Shown: positions 1-23,218 of the stretch, piece by piece | Numbering within the stretch: position 1 is the first letter of the stretch | Layout: each line of letters starts with the position of its first letter | Made by a program: the position numbers and the translations under genes | Source of the DNA: Candidatus Gastranaerophilales bacterium | GTDB lineage: Bacteria; Cyanobacteriota; Vampirovibrionia; Gastranaerophilales; Gastranaerophilaceae | Length of the DNA: 32,607 bases | Assembly: GCA_944324055.1 (NCBI GenBank) | Contig: CALUUV010000011.1 | Coordinates: 1 to 32,607 of the forward strand | Reading direction: 5' to 3' | The notes under the pieces: generated by a model | What the model was told of the DNA's origin: nothing | Databases searched by the model: none | What the model saw: the letters and a program-made list of their open reading frames with translations, nothing else

Positions 1-1088
1 GGTTGAATATGAGTAATCTGTTTTGCACTGATTGAACGAGCTTTTGCCATTAAATCTTCTGATGAATTATAGAATTTATCTGATAATGCTTCTTTATTTG
101 TTGAAATTACATTTGTTTTCTTTGCAAGTTCAAGTTGGTTTTCTTTATTTGTTAAAAATAGTCCAAAATCTAGTGCTTCATCTTTATATTTTGCTTTTAG
201 CGGAATTACAAAGTTCATCAATGAGAAATCATTTTGACCTAAGGTTCCAATAATCTGCGGCGCAACATCTGTTACTTCATAAACATTTGGGGCATTATCT
301 TTAATCATGCTAAGGAAGTTTGCCCCGCCTTGGAAAAATACTATATTTTCTGACATGTATTTTTCTAAAGCTTCTCTATGGGTTTGAGTGATACTTTCTG
401 CAGGTATTAAACCTTTTTGATAAAGTGATTTAAAGCTATCAAAAACTTTTATACTTTGTTCAGAATTGATATTTGAATAAGAATTTACCCCATATTTATT
501 TAATATCTTTAGCATTGTGTCATTTTCTGTAATTGTTGGTAGATAAATAAATTTGCCAGTATTCTTTTTAACTTGTTCTGCATATTTTGCTAAATCTTCA
601 TAAGTTGCTGGCATGTTATCAAGTTTTGCTTGATTGAATAATTTTTTATTATAGATTGTTACTGCAGATGTTGCGTACCAAGGTATAGCAAATAATTCAC
701 CTTTGTATTTAAGAGAATCAACAATATCTTTGTTATATTCAGATAATTTATTTTCATCAATAGATGCTAAAGCTCCTTTTTGAGCAAGAATTGCAGAAAA
801 ATCTGGGTTAAGGTTGATTAAATCTGGAGGATTGTTGCTTAGTATAGCTGCAAGTGTTCTTTTATCTCCTTCAGAAAAAGGTACATCAATCCATTTTATT
901 TTAATATTAGGGTGGTTTGATTCATATTTAGAAATTATGTTATTCATATAGTCTGCAAAATCTCCCATTTGCAGAGTCCAAACTATAACTTCTTTTCTAG
1001 TATCAGTATTTGTTTTTTTGAAAACAGTAAAATATGTTACGCAAAGCGCTATAACTAAACTTAATATCCAGAACCATTTATTCTTCAT
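1..1088 (-). CDS. ABC transporter extracellular solute-binding protein (family 1, sugar type), 3' end cut by window
   Basis: Reading the minus strand from ATG 1088 gives about 362 residues with no stop before the window edge, so the C-terminus is missing. The N-terminus (MKNKWFWILSLVIALCVTYF) is a signal peptide or signal anchor. The Cys in it is preceded by Leu, so it is not a normal lipobox. The rest has the layout of family 1 sugar-binding proteins: a beta-strand 'EVIVWTLQ', then 'YESNHPNIKIKWIDVPF', 'NPPDLINLNPDF', 'LFAIPWYATSAVTIYNKKLF' and 'FFQGGANFLSMIKD'. It should bind a sugar or glycerol-phosphate-like ligand outside the inner membrane for an ABC permease that is not in view. A ribosome binding site (AAGAGGTG) precedes the ATG. 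Its start lies only 28 nt from that of the divergent rarA. The ligand cannot be told from sequence. Confidence 0.85.
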   Translation of the reverse strand, partial: MKNKWFWILSLVIALCVTYFTVFKKTNTDTRKEVIVWTLQMGDFADYMNNIISKYESNHPNIKIKWIDVPFSEGDKRTLAAILSNNPPDLINLNPDFSAILAQKGALASIDENKLSEYNKDIVDSLKYKGELFAIPWYATSAVTIYNKKLFNQAKLDNMPATYEDLAKYAEQVKKNTGKFIYLPTITENDTMLKILNKYGVNSYSNINSEQSIKVFDSFKSLYQKGLIPAESITQTHREALEKYMSENIVFFQGGANFLSMIKDNAPNVYEVTDVAPQIIGTLGQNDFSLMNFVIPLKAKYKDEALDFGLFLTNKENQLELAKKTNVISTNKEALSDKFYNSSEDLMAKARSISAKQITHIQ

Positions 1089-4903: not shown

Positions 4904-4979
4904 TTTGTAAAGTAATGTTAACAACAATAAAAACAAAAAGGCAATTTTTAAAACGGTATATACTTTATATATACATAAG
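4904..4979 (+). promoter_or_regulatory. Conserved small-protein promoter, copy A
   Basis: Contains TTTGTAAA (4904-4911) and TGTTAAC ten bases further on, then CAATTTTT (4942-4949), exactly 13 nt, then CTTTATATATACATAAG (4963-4979), which supplies the probable -10 (TATATA). GTATATA/TATATAC around the -10 forms an inverted repeat. The same arrangement with the same 13-nt gap precedes the genes at 5623, 19447 and 25893. The reverse complement TTTACAAA matches the consensus half-site of the cyanobacterial HLR1 element. Regulator identity is inference. Confidence 0.6.
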
Positions 4980-4987
4980 AGATAACT

Positions 4988-5017
4988 AATTAGAAATTAG
5001 GATTTAAAAGGAGAATA
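4988..5017 (+). repeat. 30-nt leader repeat, copy 1
   Basis: A 30-nt block that includes GGATTTAAAAGGAGAATA and the ribosome binding site. It is identical to 5589-5618 before the next small-protein gene. In each case it ends 3-5 nt before the ATG. Conservation beyond what a ribosome binding site needs suggests recent duplication or a constrained 5' UTR. Confidence 0.85.
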
Positions 5018-5020
5018 AAC

Positions 5021-5359
5021 ATGGGCAAATTTGACATCAATGGCGTAAATGGTTCAACACCTGTATCAAGAACAGACGGATTAACAAGAATAACTAAAGC
5101 AGACAAAAAATTTGATTTTGGTTTTAATTCTTCAACAGATATGGAAGTTGGTTTTGATACAGTACAATTTTCTACAAAAGTAGTTACTCAAAGTGACATA
5201 GATAAAATGTGGGAGTATGCAGGTATTACAAAACCTGGATCAATTAATCCTTTAGAAAAAACAATGGCATTTGCAGCTGAAGGTGCAGAATATGGTGTTG
5301 AATATTCTGAAGAAGATATGAATCTTGCAAGATTTATGTTTGAAAACCTAAAAGCGTAA
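5021..5359 (+). CDS. Small acidic protein of unknown function (MGKFDIN family)
   Basis: A 112-residue soluble, acidic protein with no signal peptide or membrane segment; not recognised. It begins MGKFDING, close to the MGSFDINS start of the 176-residue protein encoded next, though the two diverge after about 8 residues. The N-terminal half is Ser/Thr/Asn/Gly-rich and probably disordered. The C-terminal half ('DIDKMWEYAGITKPGS...', 'SEEDMNLARFMFENLKA') looks helical. Expression should be strong: conserved promoter, AAAAGGAG ribosome binding site, and its own terminator after the stop. The 3' UTR of about 110 nt carries the motif described at 5432-5459. Single-gene transcription unit. Confidence 0.75.
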   Translation: MGKFDINGVNGSTPVSRTDGLTRITKADKKFDFGFNSSTDMEVGFDTVQFSTKVVTQSDIDKMWEYAGITKPGSINPLEKTMAFAAEGAEYGVEYSEEDMNLARFMFENLKA

Positions 5360-5366
5360 TGTATAA

Positions 5367-5490
5367 CTTTCCCTTAAAGTAGATTTAATGGCATTGGTGG
5401 ATAACGCCATTTCTATCAACTGCCATCGCCCGTGGGAAATTAGGGAAAGATTGTAAGATAAAGTTTCAAGCGTCAGTAATACTGGCGCTT
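5367..5490 (+). ncRNA. Structured 3' UTR downstream of the 112-aa protein gene
   Basis: CTTTCCCT (5367-5374) can pair with AGGGAAAG (5442-5449). The closed region includes an internal ATGGC/GCCAT hairpin (from about 5389) and CCC-GT-GGG. The 28-nt motif at 5432-5459 recurs after the next gene, and a terminator hairpin follows. No known riboswitch class is recognised. It could be a 3'-UTR-derived small RNA or an mRNA stability element. The pairings were found by eye. Confidence 0.4.
5432..5459 (+). repeat. 28-nt 3'-UTR motif, copy 1
   Basis: The core reads GTGGGAAAT, then AGGGAAA, then GTAAGAT. It matches 6185-6212 at 24 of 28 positions without gaps. In both places it lies between the stop codon of a small-protein gene and that gene's terminator hairpin. 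Confidence 0.75.
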
Positions 5491-5498
5491 TTCTTTTG
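5468..5498 (+). terminator. Intrinsic terminator of the 112-aa protein gene
   Basis: Stem AAGCGTCAG / CTGGCGCTT (one G-U pair) with loop TAATA, followed by a T-rich run TTCTTTTG. It separates this gene from the next small-protein promoter. Confidence 0.8.
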
Positions 5499-5573
5499 TT
5501 TGTAAACATTTCTTAACAAAACTAAGCAAAAAAAGCAATTTTTTCTTATGTATATACTTTATATATACATAAG
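5499..5573 (+). promoter_or_regulatory. Conserved small-protein promoter, copy B
   Basis: TTTGTAAA (5499-5506) and CTTAACA about 10 nt on, then CAATTTTT (5536-5543), 13 nt, CTTTATATATACATAAG (5557-5573). The downstream block is identical over 17 nt to copy A. The TTTGTAAA begins inside the T-run of the preceding terminator. Confidence 0.6.
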
Positions 5574-5588
5574 ATATAAATAACTAAG

Positions 5589-5618
5589 AATTAGAAATTA
5601 GGATTTAAAAGGAGAATA
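5589..5618 (+). repeat. 30-nt leader repeat, copy 2
   Basis: Identical to 4988-5017, including the AAAAGGAG ribosome binding site; see copy 1. Confidence 0.85.
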
Positions 5619-5622
5619 TATT

Positions 5623-6153
5623 ATGGGTAGCTTCGATATCAACAGTTTCAAAAATGCTTTCTTAAGTGAAATGGCAAGAATAGCAAATTCAGAAACAGTA
5701 AGTGGTCAAATAGATACTCAAGGTGAAATTCAAGCTGCAAATAATGCTAAAGCAATTTTTAAATCAGAGTTAGCATCAAATCCTATTGGTGATTCATTCC
5801 AAAAAACAAATGCTGATGCTGTTGCTAATGAGGTATCAGTTGATGATTTAATGGCTCTTCTTGATGATCCTGAATTAAATGTAGCAAGAGTAAATGAATT
5901 AATACAAGAAAAACCTGCTGAAGCATTAGGTAATCTTTCAAAAGTTGGTAGCGTAAAACGTCCTGAAGAAACTACTCAAATGGCAGAATTGTCTGATGCT
6001 GATACAGAAGGTGTAAATTTCTATACAGATAAAGCAATTGCAGAAGGTCGTAATACAGATATTGCAATGGCAACAGATTCAGCAGAAGAAGGAATTGATG
6101 CATTAGGATATAATTTTTATGATGCATTTATGGAAGCTTTGTACGCAGCATAA
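5623..6153 (+). CDS. Small acidic protein of unknown function (MGSFDIN family)
   Basis: A 176-residue, strongly acidic, Ala/Asp/Glu-rich soluble protein with no signal peptide or membrane segment; not recognised. It starts MGSFDINSF, echoing its neighbour at 5021. Predicted mostly helical: 'FKNAFLSEMARIANSE', 'NNAKAIFKSELA', 'VSVDDLMALLDDPELNVARVNELI'. The C-terminus 'EEGIDALGYNFYDAFMEALYAA' is aromatic-rich and amphipathic. It has its own promoter, the 30-nt leader shared with 5021, the shared 3'-UTR motif and a terminator, so it is an independent, probably well-expressed unit. A structural or regulatory small protein is possible; no function is claimed. Confidence 0.75.
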   Translation: MGSFDINSFKNAFLSEMARIANSETVSGQIDTQGEIQAANNAKAIFKSELASNPIGDSFQKTNADAVANEVSVDDLMALLDDPELNVARVNELIQEKPAEALGNLSKVGSVKRPEETTQMAELSDADTEGVNFYTDKAIAEGRNTDIAMATDSAEEGIDALGYNFYDAFMEALYAA

Positions 6154-6184
6154 GAATATACTTAAGCTAATGTTGCGTCCCTTT

Positions 6185-6212
6185 GTGGGAAATAGGGAAA
6201 AGATCGTAAGAT
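6185..6212 (+). repeat. 28-nt 3'-UTR motif, copy 2
   Basis: Second copy of the motif at 5432-5459, 32 nt after the stop codon. CCCT (6179-6182) can pair with AGGG (6194-6197), or TCCC with GGGA (6187-6190). The upstream half of the structured region seen in copy 1 is missing here. Confidence 0.7.
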
Positions 6213-6221
6213 TTGGGTTAA

Positions 6222-6249
6222 AGTTGCGGCATTTATTGCCGCTTTTTTT
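6222..6249 (+). terminator. Intrinsic terminator of the 176-aa protein gene
   Basis: Stem GCGGCA (6226-6231) / TGCCGC (6237-6242), loop TTTAT, followed by a run of seven T. A canonical factor-independent terminator. Confidence 0.9.
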
Positions 6250-6330
6250 GTTTTGTAAAGTTTTTTCGAATAACTAGCAAAATAAATTTGTTATATGTTT
6301 TATTTGATTATCAAATTTAAAGGTTAGTTT

Positions 6331-19348: not shown

Positions 19349-19422
19349 CTGTAAACAATTGTAAACTTGTATTATTAGTTTAGTCAATTTTAATCCGTTG
19401 ATATTCTTTATATATACATAGG
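19349..19422 (+). promoter_or_regulatory. Conserved small-protein promoter, copy C
   Basis: Two TGTAAAC direct repeats (19350-19356 and 19360-19366) spaced 10 nt start to start, then CAATTTTA (19385-19392), 13 nt, CTTTATATATACATAGG (19406-19422). Read on the other strand, the repeats give TTTACAAT-TG-TTTACAGT. This matches a double HLR1-type element at all but one defined position. It would sit about 50-70 nt upstream of the start site, an activator position. Confidence 0.6.
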
Positions 19423-19446: not shown

Positions 19447-19689
19447 ATGGCAATTGGTGCAAAAGATCAAATTGATAAGTTATTAGTTCAAAAATATTCA
19501 GATAAACAAGTAGATAACCATGGTAATGACCAATCTACAATATCAGCAGATGATGTAATGAGAATAATGAATTATGTTTCAACAAATACAATGACTCAAA
19601 TGAAACTATCAAGAAGATTATCAATTGCTTGTTATGCAATAAATGCAATGTCAGCAAACTACAATCGTTCAAGACGTCTTGCTGGTTAA
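19447..19689 (+). CDS. Small protein of unknown function
   Basis: An 80-residue soluble protein, not recognised, without signal peptide or membrane segment. The first half is polar ('DKLLVQKYSDKQVDNHGNDQST'). The second half is a probable amphipathic helix followed by a basic tail ('ISADDVMRIMNYVSTNTM', 'KLSRRLSIACYAINAMS', 'RSRRLAG'). It has promoter copy C and AAGGGG before the ATG. Convergent with the motor operon, 13 nt from the fliN stop, with no terminator of its own visible. The shared promoter links it to the proteins encoded at 5021, 5623 and 25893, but their sequences are not alike. Confidence 0.7.
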   Translation: MAIGAKDQIDKLLVQKYSDKQVDNHGNDQSTISADDVMRIMNYVSTNTMTQMKLSRRLSIACYAINAMSANYNRSRRLAG

Positions 19690-19702: not shown

Positions 19703-20146
19703 TTATTTTTCAGTTGTTGTTTCGTGTACAGTTTTAAGTCTTTCTTCAGGGGCTGCTATACTTGTAATTCTAAGACCAAAGTTATCTTCAATAACAACAA
19801 CTTCTCCAAAAGCAACAAGTTTGCCATTTGCAAACAATTCAACTGGTTCACCAGCTAGTTTATCTAAACTAATGATTGAACCACGAGTTAATTCTAAAAC
19901 TTTTTTAAATGGAAGTTCAGTTCTTCCAAGTTCAACTGACATCTGAAGATTTACATTCATAAGTAAATCAAGGTTTTTATTTTCTTTTCCGTGAACATTT
20001 TCTTCTTCATCAAAAGAGGCGAATTGAACCGGTTGAACAGTAACAGGAGTTTCTTCAACAACATCATCTGATTTTGCTGAATCTATGTTTTGTTCAAAGT
20101 TAAAATTTTGTATATTCTGTTCATCTGGCTGTTGATCGTCAAACAT
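19703..20146 (-). CDS. fliN: Flagellar motor switch protein FliN
   Basis: A 147-residue protein. After a disordered acidic N-terminus of about 70 residues, the C-terminal SpoA (surface presentation of antigens) domain is intact: '[66 protein letters not shown]'. It forms the lower C-ring with FliM and binds FliH and the export apparatus. ATG 20146 is preferred over the adjacent TTG, with AGGGGG 6 nt upstream. Last gene of the motA-motB-fliL-fliM-fliN operon, 12 nt after fliM. Confidence 0.92.
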
Positions 20147-20158
20147 CAAAATCCCCCT

Positions 20159-21154
20159 CTATTCATAATTTCTCATAAGTTCATACATTTCATCGTAGAT
20201 ATCTGTTATTTTAACACAAACATTGTTTTTTAAGATTCCTGGTCTTGCAAAGAATTTTTTTACACCATTGATTTTTACGATTAAATCTTTATCAATAGTT
20301 TCGTCAAGTTTAAGGATATCTCCTTCAGATAATTTCAAAAATTCTTCTAGAGTAATATCACAAGTTCCAAATTGAGCTCTAATATCCATCATTGATGGAT
20401 TTAACTTGTGAATCATTCTTTGTCTTTCTTCACTTGTTGCAACAATCCCTTTTGATTGGAAAATATGTTGTGATGTTAAATGAGGAATAACAGTTTCTAA
20501 TACAGGGTATGGGAAACAAAGACTTGCAAGTCCAAATGTTTTTTCTGATACCTGAATTTCAAAAGTTAATAACGCAACGATTTCTCCAGGAGCAGCAACT
20601 TGTATTGATTGAAAACCGCTATCAAGTCCAACAATTGAATATTCTACAGGGATAATGCTAGTCCAAGCATCATTAAGATTTTTTATTATGATATCTATAA
20701 TCTTTTTAGTAAGTGAAGTTTCTACGTCTGTTAATTCTTTGTATTGAGGAGTTGCATCTCCTTTACCACCAAGCATACGGTCAACAATACAAGATAATAC
20801 TTCGTAAGTTATTCCAAAAAGAATTTGACCAGGTAGAGGGTTGAATTCAAATATTCCAACGCTCATACTTGGAGGCATTGAATTAACAAATTCATCGTAA
20901 GTTAATTGGTCAACAGAAACGATATCAATATTAACTTTCATTCTAAGATAACCGGTAAGAATCATAGATATTTGTTTTGAAAACTCTCTGTGGATATCTT
21001 GTAATGCTCTTAAAGTATCTTTAGAAAATTTGTCGGGTCTACGGAAGTTATATAATTTATAACCTTTTCTAAACTCATTAACATCAATACTTTCCATTAG
21101 CATTGATGTTTCATTTGAGTTTGAATTTGTATCTTGTAATTTATTTTCTTCCAT
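20159..21154 (-). CDS. fliM: Flagellar motor switch protein FliM
   Basis: A 331-residue C-ring protein that couples CheY signalling to rotation. The middle CheC-like domain runs from about residue 45 to 230, with the conserved GGKG (129-132) in 'DRMLGGKGDATPQYKELTDVE'. The C-terminal SpoA domain follows ('QFGTCDITLEEFLKLSEGDILKLDETIDKDLIVKINGVKKFFARPGI'). The usual N-terminal CheY-phosphate-binding peptide (L-S-Q-x-E-I-D-A-L-L) is not recognisable; the protein starts MEENKLQDTNSNSNETSMLM instead. The operon position, 30 nt after fliL and 12 nt before fliN, supports the call. Otherwise full length. Confidence 0.93.
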   Translation of the reverse strand: MEENKLQDTNSNSNETSMLMESIDVNEFRKGYKLYNFRRPDKFSKDTLRALQDIHREFSKQISMILTGYLRMKVNIDIVSVDQLTYDEFVNSMPPSMSVGIFEFNPLPGQILFGITYEVLSCIVDRMLGGKGDATPQYKELTDVETSLTKKIIDIIIKNLNDAWTSIIPVEYSIVGLDSGFQSIQVAAPGEIVALLTFEIQVSEKTFGLASLCFPYPVLETVIPHLTSQHIFQSKGIVATSEERQRMIHKLNPSMMDIRAQFGTCDITLEEFLKLSEGDILKLDETIDKDLIVKINGVKKFFARPGILKNNVCVKITDIYDEMYELMRNYE

Positions 21155-21184
21155 TTCCCTATTTCACCAATCAACAAAATATTA

Positions 21185-21811
21185 TTATTGTATAATAAAT
21201 TGTCCAAAACTTACTCTTAATACTTCGTTTTGTCCAGCTAAAATACCATTTACCGCAGCCATAATTTGTTCTTTAGCAAGTTCTTTTCCTGCAACAGTAG
21301 ATAATTCAGCAGCAGTTTTGCTAGAAAGAGTTGTAAGGATAGCATCTCTAATAGCAGGTTTATATTCAGTCAATCTCTTTTCAAGTTCAGATTGAGTAGG
21401 AGCTGCTTGTTCTTCTCCATGACCGCCGTGTCCGCCAGATTTCTTAGGAGTTGCTTCAGCAACTTGTTCTTCTTCTGTTTGACTTATTTCAAGTGCAACA
21501 TTAGTTTTTAAATATCTTCTGCTAGATTCATCTGCTAAGTTTAATACAAAATCACCTAAGTCAACGATTACTCCGTGTTTTACTTGTTCAGAATCTTCAT
21601 CTGCAGCATAATCAGCTTCTTCTGTTTGATTATTTAAAGTTGCAAGTTTTGAATTTAATAAGTTTGTTTGAATAATAAAATTAGCACAAATAAAAATTAT
21701 ACAAAGTAATGTTGTAGAAATTACATTGATGATAATTGTTTTTAAAAATTCATTAGGTGTTTTATTTGAATTTTGTACGTGTCTTTTTAAATCGATATCC
21801 TCGTTGCTCAT
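21185..21811 (-). CDS. fliL: Flagellar basal body-associated protein FliL
   Basis: A 208-residue single-pass inner-membrane protein (membrane segment about 27-49, 'IIINVISTTLLCIIFICANF') with a periplasmic FliL domain: 'VIVDLGDFVLNLADESSRRYLKTNVALEIS' and the end 'LRVSFGQFIIQ'. FliL surrounds the stators and supports torque. The domain carries an insertion of about 30 residues with a Gly/His patch, 'KKSGGHGGHGEEQ', a possible metal-binding loop. The ATG begins one nt after the motB stop, with GGAG inside motB. Sits between motB and fliM, a standard location. Confidence 0.9.
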   Translation of the reverse strand: MSNEDIDLKRHVQNSNKTPNEFLKTIIINVISTTLLCIIFICANFIIQTNLLNSKLATLNNQTEEADYAADEDSEQVKHGVIVDLGDFVLNLADESSRRYLKTNVALEISQTEEEQVAEATPKKSGGHGGHGEEQAAPTQSELEKRLTEYKPAIRDAILTTLSSKTAAELSTVAGKELAKEQIMAAVNGILAGQNEVLRVSFGQFIIQ

Positions 21812-21812
21812 A

Positions 21813-22460
21813 TTAATCTCCAGTATTATTATCCAATATTATTATATCAACTCTTCTATTCTTCATCCTACCACTATTTGATGTATTCTCTGCAATTGGA
21901 GCAAATTCTCCGTATCCAACAGCAGATAATCTTCGAGGATTTATTCTTTTTGATTCAACAAGGTAATTTATTACGCTTGTTGCTCTTGCAGTAGATAATT
22001 CCCAATTTGATGAATATTTTTCTGATTTTATAGGGAATGAATCTGTATGCCCTTCTATTATAACAGGATTATCTATTTTTGACAAAATATCTATTATTTT
22101 ATTTAAAGTTTGGTAAGCTTCAGGTTGAACTTCTGACTCAGCTGAGCCAAATAATATATTATCTTTGAGTCTTATAATCAAACCTCGAGTATCTTTTAGT
22201 AATATAACATTGTCATCATTATTAAATTCTGTTAATAATTCTTTTTGTAATTCTGGCATTTTTACAACTTTTTGGTTTTTAATTTCTGCGTTAATTGTTG
22301 TTTGGTTGTTTTTACCAGTAGCATTTGCTTTAAGATTTGCAGTGTTAACTGCATACATTACTAAAAATAATGCAAGAAGTAGTGTTACTAAATCTGCGTA
22401 AGATATAACCCAACGGTTTATATAGTCTTTTGAATTGTTGTAATCATAATCTTTAAGCAA
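21813..22460 (-). CDS. motB: Flagellar motor stator protein MotB
   Basis: A 215-residue stator subunit. The single membrane helix 'RWVISYADLVTLLLALFLVMYA' carries the proton-binding Asp at D23, followed by a plug/linker and an OmpA-like peptidoglycan-binding domain ('VIIEGHTDSFPIKSEKYSSNWELSTARA', 'RLSAVGYGEFAPIAEN', 'MKNRRVDIII'). It starts at TTG 22460 with AGAGG six nt upstream; the next Met is inside the membrane helix, so the TTG start is needed. Adjacent to motA (2 nt). A Tol/Exb-type alternative is rejected by the OmpA domain and the fliLMN neighbours. Confidence 0.93.
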   Translation of the reverse strand: MLKDYDYNNSKDYINRWVISYADLVTLLLALFLVMYAVNTANLKANATGKNNQTTINAEIKNQKVVKMPELQKELLTEFNNDDNVILLKDTRGLIIRLKDNILFGSAESEVQPEAYQTLNKIIDILSKIDNPVIIEGHTDSFPIKSEKYSSNWELSTARATSVINYLVESKRINPRRLSAVGYGEFAPIAENTSNSGRMKNRRVDIIILDNNTGD

Positions 22461-22462
22461 AA

Positions 22463-23218
22463 TTAACCTCTATCGTGAATTCTTGTATAACCCATTAATT
22501 TCTCTTCAAGAATTGTAGGACTTTCTTGAAGACATATAGAAATAATACCTTGTAGTATTAATTCTTTGAAAAGAATTTTTTCTCTTGTTTTTTGTTTAAG
22601 ATTTCCTGCAATAGGAAGGAATATAATATTTGCAATTCCTACACCATATAATGTTGATACGAATGCAGTTGCAATACCATAGCCTAATGTATCAATCGCA
22701 GTTAAATCTTTTAATACATTTATTAATCCTAATACTGCTCCAACTAAACCAAATGTTGGTGCATAACCACCAAGAGCTTCAAATACTCTTGAACTAATAA
22801 GTTCTTCTTCCTCTTCGTATGAAATTTCTGAAGATAAAATATCATAAATTAATTGAGGGTTTCCTATATCAACAACAAGTTGTAAGCCTCTAGCTAAGAA
22901 TGAATCAGTTACGTCATTTAGTACATTACCTAAGGCTAATAATCCATTTTTTCTTGCGTATATTGATAGTTGCATTATTTCTTTTATTATTTGATTTGTA
23001 TTAGATTTTTCCATTCTAAAAATATCAATGGCATTTTTTATTGCTATTAATAGAGTTTTTTTATCAAAATTAAGGATAGTTGCACATAATGTTCCACCAA
23101 TTACAATGATGAAAGCAGTCGGTTGTAGAAGCATTCTAATTGAAAGCCCATTTGCTAATTGGCTTGAAAAAACAATGATAACTCCTATTATTCCTAATAA
23201 TAGAATCCCTAAATTCAC
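22463..23218 (-). CDS. motA: Flagellar motor stator protein MotA
   Basis: A 251-residue stator subunit with four membrane segments. 'LNFDKKTLLIAIKNAIDIFRMEK' begins the cytoplasmic loop, 'FEALGGYAPTFGLVGAVLGLINVLKDL' is the third membrane segment, and 'LGYGIATAFVSTLYGVGIANIIFLPIAGNLKQK' is the fourth, with the conserved Pro. Start is GTG 23218 with GAGGG upstream. First gene of the motor operon, divergent from the amidase gene. No clear sigma-28 or sigma-54 promoter is seen in the 125-nt gap. Confidence 0.93.
   Translation of the reverse strand: MNLGILLLGIIGVIIVFSSQLANGLSIRMLLQPTAFIIVIGGTLCATILNFDKKTLLIAIKNAIDIFRMEKSNTNQIIKEIMQLSIYARKNGLLALGNVLNDVTDSFLARGLQLVVDIGNPQLIYDILSSEISYEEEEELISSRVFEALGGYAPTFGLVGAVLGLINVLKDLTAIDTLGYGIATAFVSTLYGVGIANIIFLPIAGNLKQKTREKILFKELILQGIISICLQESPTILEEKLMGYTRIHDRG

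What the first reader, a model, noticed from the sequence alone, without database searches (positions are those of the whole stretch)
4904..6249. Small-protein genes in a conserved regulatory wrapper: same promoter, leader and 3' UTR, different coding sequence
Two adjacent genes (5021-5359, 5623-6153) share a 17-nt identical -10 block, a 30-nt identical leader, a 28-nt motif (24/28) in the 3' UTR and a terminator. Yet their proteins agree only over MG(K/S)FDIN. Sequence outside the gene is kept while the coding part has changed. This could be a family of small-protein cassettes under joint control, or 3'-UTR-derived small RNAs whose ORFs matter less. Neither protein nor the UTR element matches a family I know.
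Basis: partly seen in the sequence, partly recalled or inferred. Interest (0 to 1): 0.75.

Follow-up and report, generated by a model that had tools for sequence, protein, structure and literature searches.

The report
Small-protein gene pair in hidden regulon
Two neighbouring small-protein genes in an uncultured gut relative of cyanobacteria share a promoter that turns out to be the signature of a previously unrecognised, order-wide set of mostly unknown proteins, and one of them ends in a conserved structured RNA.

Summary
ORFs 5021-5359 and 5623-6153 share promoter, 30-nt leader and a 3'-UTR core. Both ORFs are under purifying selection and occur in 7 of 8 genomes of the genus (at least gene 2 in the eighth). 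The wrapper splits into layers of different reach. (1) The promoter (GCAATT-N10-TATATACTTTATATA) is not private to the pair: it recurs in 127 of 146 genomes of the order, never in the reversed-pattern control, and in 0 of 84 genomes elsewhere in the phylum. A matrix scan of 798 kb of a sister genome found 20 sites (controls 0), all 3-61 nt upstream of an ORF, mostly of unknown family; it also found a third site in the window (19384). (2) Leader and 3'-UTR core are specific to the pair, kept even where the genes lie on separate contigs. 'Cassettes under joint control' is right and wider than supposed; 'sRNA with unimportant ORFs' is not supported. Regulator and function are inferred: probably a dedicated sigma factor or activator, plus mRNA-level control of the pair.

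The parts
4941..4971 (+). Promoter of gene 1: GCAATT (4941-4946), 10 nt, TATATACTTTATATA (4957-4971)
4988..5017 (+). 30-nt leader shared with gene 2, with two GGA motifs, the second in the Shine-Dalgarno
5021..5359 (+). Gene 1, 112 aa, MGKFDINGVNG..., no known family; N-terminal half without predicted structure (low-confidence model)
5367..5449 (+). Structured RNA in the 3' UTR of gene 1: P1 5367-5374/5442-5449; P2 5388-5393/5421-5426; P3 5394-5399/5414-5419; possible pseudoknot 5409-5413/5436-5440
   Evidence: z = -4.65; 6 pairs with changes on both sides; model R2 finds it only in the genus
5432..5459 (+). 3'-UTR core GTGGGAAATTAGGGAAAGATTGTAAGAT shared with gene 2
5468..5493 (+). Intrinsic-terminator-like stem plus T-run of gene 1
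   Evidence: sequence; stem
5535..5565 (+). Promoter of gene 2, same pattern
5589..5618 (+). 30-nt leader of gene 2, identical to that of gene 1
5623..6153 (+). Gene 2, 176 aa, MGSFDINSFKNAF..., no known family
6185..6212 (+). 3'-UTR core GTGGGAAATAGGGAAAAGATCGTAAGAT of gene 2; short version without the inner hairpin
6226..6250 (+). Intrinsic-terminator-like stem plus T-run of gene 2
19384..19414 (+). Third promoter of the same class (3 mismatches)
19447..19689 (+). Third regulon gene in the window, 80 aa MAIGAKDQIDKLL...; relatives stand under exact copies of the promoter in other genomes

Best explanation
The two genes are separate one-gene transcription units belonging to an order-wide regulon defined by one promoter class: (G/T)CAATT, 17 nt, then TTT(A/G)TATATA, read by a dedicated sigma factor or an activator. 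Regulon products are mostly small, mostly without an obvious Sec signal, and of unknown family. Within this genus, genes 1 and 2 descend from a duplicated unit (promoter, leader, start MGxFDIN, 3' core). Their coding parts diverged past recognition while the untranslated parts were held, because the pair shares control at the mRNA level. The leader carries two GGA motifs, one in the Shine-Dalgarno, as in CsrA-type repression. The 3' UTR of gene 1 folds into a hairpin closed by P1, possibly with a pseudoknot, ahead of the terminator, which would protect the message or bind a regulator. Shown: promoter recurrence, position upstream of ORFs, selection on the ORFs, the covarying hairpin. Inferred: promoter function, the sigma factor or activator, the duplication, CsrA control, the task of the RNA.
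For: Promoter: 66 of 78 family genomes and 127 of 146 order genomes, reversed pattern 0 in all; 0 of 84 genomes elsewhere in the phylum; 1 match in the whole viral collection. In 798 kb of G040, 20 sites above 8 bits, reversed control 0, first-order simulation 0, every site 3-61 nt before an ORF start. Of 142 exact-type sites examined, 112 have a ribosome-binding-like site and a start within 130 nt; the median distance over the 138 assigned ORFs is 32 nt. Genes: orthologues of both in 7 of 8 genus genomes, the window's included, gene 2 start in the eighth; dN below dS. Structure: z -4.65; 6 pairs with double-sided change against at most 2 in slid versions. Both leader GGA motifs kept in all copies; CsrA gene in all 8 genomes.
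Against: No transcript data. The block TATATACTTTATATA is itself a near-palindrome, so a repressor or activator site is not excluded. Genes 1 and 2 show no detectable homology beyond 10 residues, so the duplication rests mainly on the untranslated parts. P1 and the pseudoknot do not covary. In the gene 1 structure one 3' GGA lies in P1 and the other in the proposed pseudoknot, which does not suit CsrA.
Confidence: 0.62

Rival explanations
1. Plain tandem duplication: the shared untranslated parts are merely leftovers and carry no function.
For: Genes are adjacent in most genomes; upstream 90 nt are 75-78 positions identical between the two; shared start MGxFDIN.
Against: The promoter recurs before unrelated ORFs across the order. 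Leader and 3' core stay nearly unchanged while the proteins fall to about 60% identity, and also in G070, where the genes lie on separate contigs. Compensatory changes.
Confidence: 0.08
2. 3'-UTR-derived small RNAs: the main product is a stable 3' fragment acting in trans, and the ORFs are of minor importance.
For: Strong fold before a terminator and a conserved tail GATNGTAAGAT shared by both.
Against: ORFs are kept with dN below dS and the C-terminus of gene 1 is nearly invariant; the inner hairpin is missing from gene 2. Hfq and ProQ were not searched.
Confidence: 0.12
3. CsrA-controlled pair: leader GGA motifs bind CsrA, and the 3' GGA-rich core is a second binding site or sponge. This is a refinement of the best explanation rather than an exclusive alternative.
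For: CsrA present once in all 8 genus genomes; an AGGA kept in the leaders upstream of the Shine-Dalgarno.
Against: A GGA is expected in any Shine-Dalgarno; the 3' GGA motifs are partly in a stem; no binding data.
Confidence: 0.25
4. Export cassettes: regulon proteins are substrates or effectors of a conserved flagellum-like type III export apparatus, and the shared protein start and leader help targeting. Also compatible with the best explanation.
For: A locus FliE-FliF-unknown-FliH-FlhA and a second FlhA type in nearly all family genomes, also in those where no flagellar-type FlhA was found; regulon members include an EF-hand protein (NCBIfam hit XopAW), lytic transglycosylases, a calpain-like protease and a weak phosphatase hit; products rich in N, S, T, G and poor in C.
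Against: No regulon site at that operon in the loci inspected; most members have no known domain; such secretion signals cannot be read from sequence with these tools; some promoter-negative genomes keep this FlhA.
Confidence: 0.3
5. The block is an operator for a repressor or activator working with the housekeeping sigma factor, not a promoter specific to one alternative sigma factor.
For: TATATA-CTT-TATATA is an inverted repeat; the spacing of GCAATT to TTTATA is 17 nt, as in sigma-70 promoters.
Against: The most invariant part in the scanned sites is the asymmetric CTTT(R)TATA, not the symmetric arms, and the sites keep one orientation to the gene.
Confidence: 0.35

Closest known systems
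Alternative sigma factor regulons (for example FliA/sigma-28, sporulation sigma factors)
   Same: One promoter class with fixed spacing before many scattered genes
   Different: (K)CAATT-N17-TTTATATATA matches none of the consensus sequences I know (from memory, not tested against a library); the regulator is not identified
CsrA-regulated mRNAs
   Same: Two GGA motifs in the leader, one in the Shine-Dalgarno; CsrA gene present
   Different: No binding data; the 3' element is not a row of GGA hairpins
3'-UTR-derived sRNAs and structured 3' UTRs
   Same: Stable fold between stop codon and terminator
   Different: ORFs are clearly selected; trans activity unknown; no Rfam family matches
Flagellar/type III export substrates
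   Same: Low-cysteine, N/S/T/G-rich proteins, mostly without an obvious Sec signal, in genomes with conserved export genes
   Different: No shared domain and no demonstrated export

Membership tests
Promoter-defined regulon | Motif recurs above chance in many genomes | tested here: met
Promoter-defined regulon | Sites lie in fixed orientation just upstream of genes | tested here: met
Promoter-defined regulon | Transcription starts at the motif and depends on one factor | not testable with these tools
   needs RNA data
Structured RNA | Fold more stable than shuffles | tested here: met
   gene 1 z -4.65; gene 2 only -1.81
Structured RNA | Compensatory base changes | tested here: met
   hairpin P2/P3; not P1 and not the pseudoknot
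Known Rfam family or riboswitch | Match to a covariance model | tested here: not met
CsrA target | CsrA encoded in the genome | tested here: met
CsrA target | GGA motifs accessible and bound by CsrA | tested here: inconclusive
   leader largely unstructured, 3' motifs partly paired; binding not tested
Type III export substrate | Export apparatus encoded | tested here: met
Type III export substrate | Protein leaves the cell through it | not testable with these tools
   none
Homologous protein pair | Detectable homology of gene 1 and gene 2 products | tested here: not met
   10 residues, probability 7%
sRNA derived from a 3' UTR | Stable processed 3' fragment | not testable with these tools
   needs sequencing

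The most novel reading that the evidence does not exclude
Gastranaerophilales use a dedicated, previously undescribed promoter class and its own regulator to switch on dozens of small proteins and effector-like enzymes as a unit, exported by a conserved flagellum-derived apparatus; genes 1 and 2 are its genus-specific, RNA-controlled members.
Probability: 0.25. Interest if true: 0.85.

Novelty: new variant of a known kind. Interest (0 to 1): 0.63.

Why it matters
Gastranaerophilales are uncultured or barely cultured gut and environmental bacteria about whose gene regulation almost nothing is known; no paper in the library searched holds both their name and 'promoter motif'. A promoter that can be read from sequence alone delimits a co-regulated set of unknown proteins in well over a hundred genomes and gives a handle on its regulator. 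Reports that many members have only a partial flagellar gene set (PMC4040986, PMC5877343) gain a possible meaning if a second, conserved export apparatus serves this set. The gene 1 RNA is a new, compact structured 3' UTR.

Tried and rejected
Rfam at gathering and relaxed thresholds: only chance matches. Pfam, NCBIfam, PHROGs and PDB sequence searches with both proteins: nothing usable. AlphaFold models of both proteins had mean pLDDT 43 and 37, so no fold search was made. Weak protein hits outside the genus (L010, L018) are unrelated ORFs. RNA model R1 was built with a misplaced structure and dropped for R2. Weak R2 matches in other genera (E 0.07-0.46) were taken as chance. A 22-aa ORF inside the gene 1 3' UTR (ATG at 5388) and the antisense ORF 5348-5509 are not conserved: the ATG is lost in G040 and G070, and a one-base gap shifts the frame in G153 and G169. 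Phage origin: one promoter match in the viral collection, the 3'-UTR core none. Integron-like cassettes were considered and rejected by eye: no attC-like site recognised and no integrase noticed among the window ORFs. Linking the promoter to one sigma factor by listing sigma genes was inconclusive: 8 sigma-70 region-2 proteins in the genome. Loss of the promoter did not track loss of either FlhA type.

Full report
What is there. ORFs 5021-5359 (112 aa) and 5623-6153 (176 aa) each have their own promoter-like block, ribosome-binding site, 3' UTR and terminator-like stem with a T-run. The 30-nt leader is identical and occurs nowhere else in the genome, tested on its 26-nt core with 3 mismatches. 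The 3'-UTR match of 24/28 is correct.

Taxonomy. The same-genus contigs are deposited as Candidatus Gastranaerophilales, apart from one labelled only uncultured bacterium; the genome set holds eight genomes of the genus, the window's own included.

The genes are real. Orthologues of both occur in G040, G070, G117, G153, G169 and G179. In G135 two contig ends carry the start of gene 2-like ORFs under the same promoter, so a repeated copy probably broke the assembly there. In G070 the two genes lie on different contigs, next to different neighbours. dN is below dS: ratio about 0.4-0.5 for gene 1 and 0.1-0.3 for gene 2. The C-terminus of gene 1 is nearly invariant. No library gives a family. Profile comparison finds only the first 10 residues in common.

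The promoter is the wide layer. GCAATT followed by 10 nt and TATATACTTTATATA occurs 3-8 times in each genome of the genus (which allowed 8-16 nt), in 66 of 78 genomes of the family and in 127 of 146 of the order, including 10 of 22 sampled genomes of other families. The pattern read backwards gave no match in any of these searches. Elsewhere in the phylum it was absent from 84 of 84 genomes, though many of these may be less AT-rich. The viral collection holds one match. A matrix from 143 instances scanned over 798 kb of G040 gave 20 sites above 8 bits, against none in the reversed sequence and none in a first-order simulation; each lies 3-61 nt before an ORF. By length this suggests around 50 sites per genome; that is an extrapolation. 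The matrix includes G040's own exact sites among its instances, so it is not fully independent of them; the inexact sites are. The scanned sites show the invariant part to be CTTT(A/G)TATA, with (G/T)CAATT upstream at a spacing of 17 nt to TTTATA. The matrix also found 19384-19414 in this window, before an 80-aa ORF whose relatives in other genomes stand under exact copies of the promoter. That is an independent confirmation that the block belongs to the gene.

What the regulon encodes. From 142 sites, 112 had a ribosome-binding-like site and a start within 130 nt, falling into 44 sequence clusters. Of 50 proteins scanned few matched Pfam or NCBIfam: transglycosylase SLT (best NCBIfam name the flagellar-assembly type), EF-hand (NCBIfam hit XopAW), calpain-like protease, thioredoxin, DUF3137; some of these were assigned from ORFs more than 130 nt away and may not belong. 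In G040 there is also a weak dual-specificity phosphatase hit and a ribbon-helix-helix protein. A crude test found no Sec-like stretch in 104 proteins, but it missed at least one obvious signal peptide (L051/L058), so it is only a rough indication.

The RNA layer. The 3' UTR of gene 1 folds well below shuffles (z -4.65); that of gene 2 does not stand out (z -1.81). On seven genomes, six pairs of the inner hairpin change on both sides: the U-A, U-A, G-C run at its middle becomes C-G, C-G, A-U in G040 and G070. Slid versions reach at most 2, and 1 of 500 shuffles reaches 6. Seven related sequences are few, and changes shared by G040 and G070 may be single events. A pseudoknot AUUUC/GAAAU fits all seven but is invariant. 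A covariance model finds strong matches only in seven genomes of the genus, one each; the two-copy core is likewise confined to the genus. Small ORFs across this stretch are not conserved.

How it most likely works. The promoter calls genes 1 and 2 together with the rest of the regulon. The shared leader and 3' core suggest that the pair has a further control of its own at the mRNA level. CsrA is a fair candidate, as it is encoded in all eight genomes and an AGGA is kept upstream of the Shine-Dalgarno, but nothing here tests binding. The origin is best read as an old duplication of one unit, followed by divergence of the coding part.

Export. Nearly all family genomes have a FlhA-type protein distinct from the flagellar one. 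In the locus annotated in G006 it follows FliE, FliF, an unknown protein and FliH; similar gene order is seen by eye in G022 and G040. Earlier papers describe partial flagellar gene sets in this order (PMC4040986, PMC5877343). That the regulon supplies this apparatus is a guess: the loci inspected carry no regulon site at the operon itself.

Limits. No expression data; proteins are too novel for confident models; the regulator is unidentified; comparison of the promoter with known sigma consensus sequences was from memory.

Noticed in passing
L208:7081-13064 (G006), also L209, L210: A conserved locus FliE-FliF-unknown-FliH-FlhA, distinct from the flagellar FlhA; this FlhA type is in nearly all family genomes, including genomes where no flagellar type was found.
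   Followed up: partly
L212:9728-11203: A third protein in most genomes carrying only the C-terminal FHIPEP part (about 165 bits), function unknown.
   Followed up: no
L171, L179 (G135): Two contig ends within near-identical gene 2-like starts: probably several copies of the cassette in that genome.
   Followed up: no
L176:2015-2624 (G070), L241:8552-9165 (G040): A further gene (MDSSSANTTNM.../MESSSANTTNM...) starting only about 3 nt after the promoter block, possibly leaderless; in G070 it lies directly after gene 1.
   Followed up: no
L067, L079, L080, L087, L089: Exact promoter copies with no obvious ORF close downstream; L067 and L079 share CACACTAACT: candidate non-coding transcripts or long leaders.
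   Followed up: no
L243:6429-7289, L145:1039-1941: Regulon genes with a weak phosphatase match (CNQGSHRTD) and a GACDCWLLSAVNAL stretch that looks calpain-like: effector-like enzymes.
   Followed up: partly
L192 (7579 bases), 85-115, minus strand: The single viral-collection contig with the promoter, followed by a ribosome-binding-like site and an ATG.
   Followed up: no
window 19703-23218: ORFs that look like fliN, fliM, fliL, motB and motA (by eye, no search made) next to the third regulon gene at 19447.
   Followed up: no
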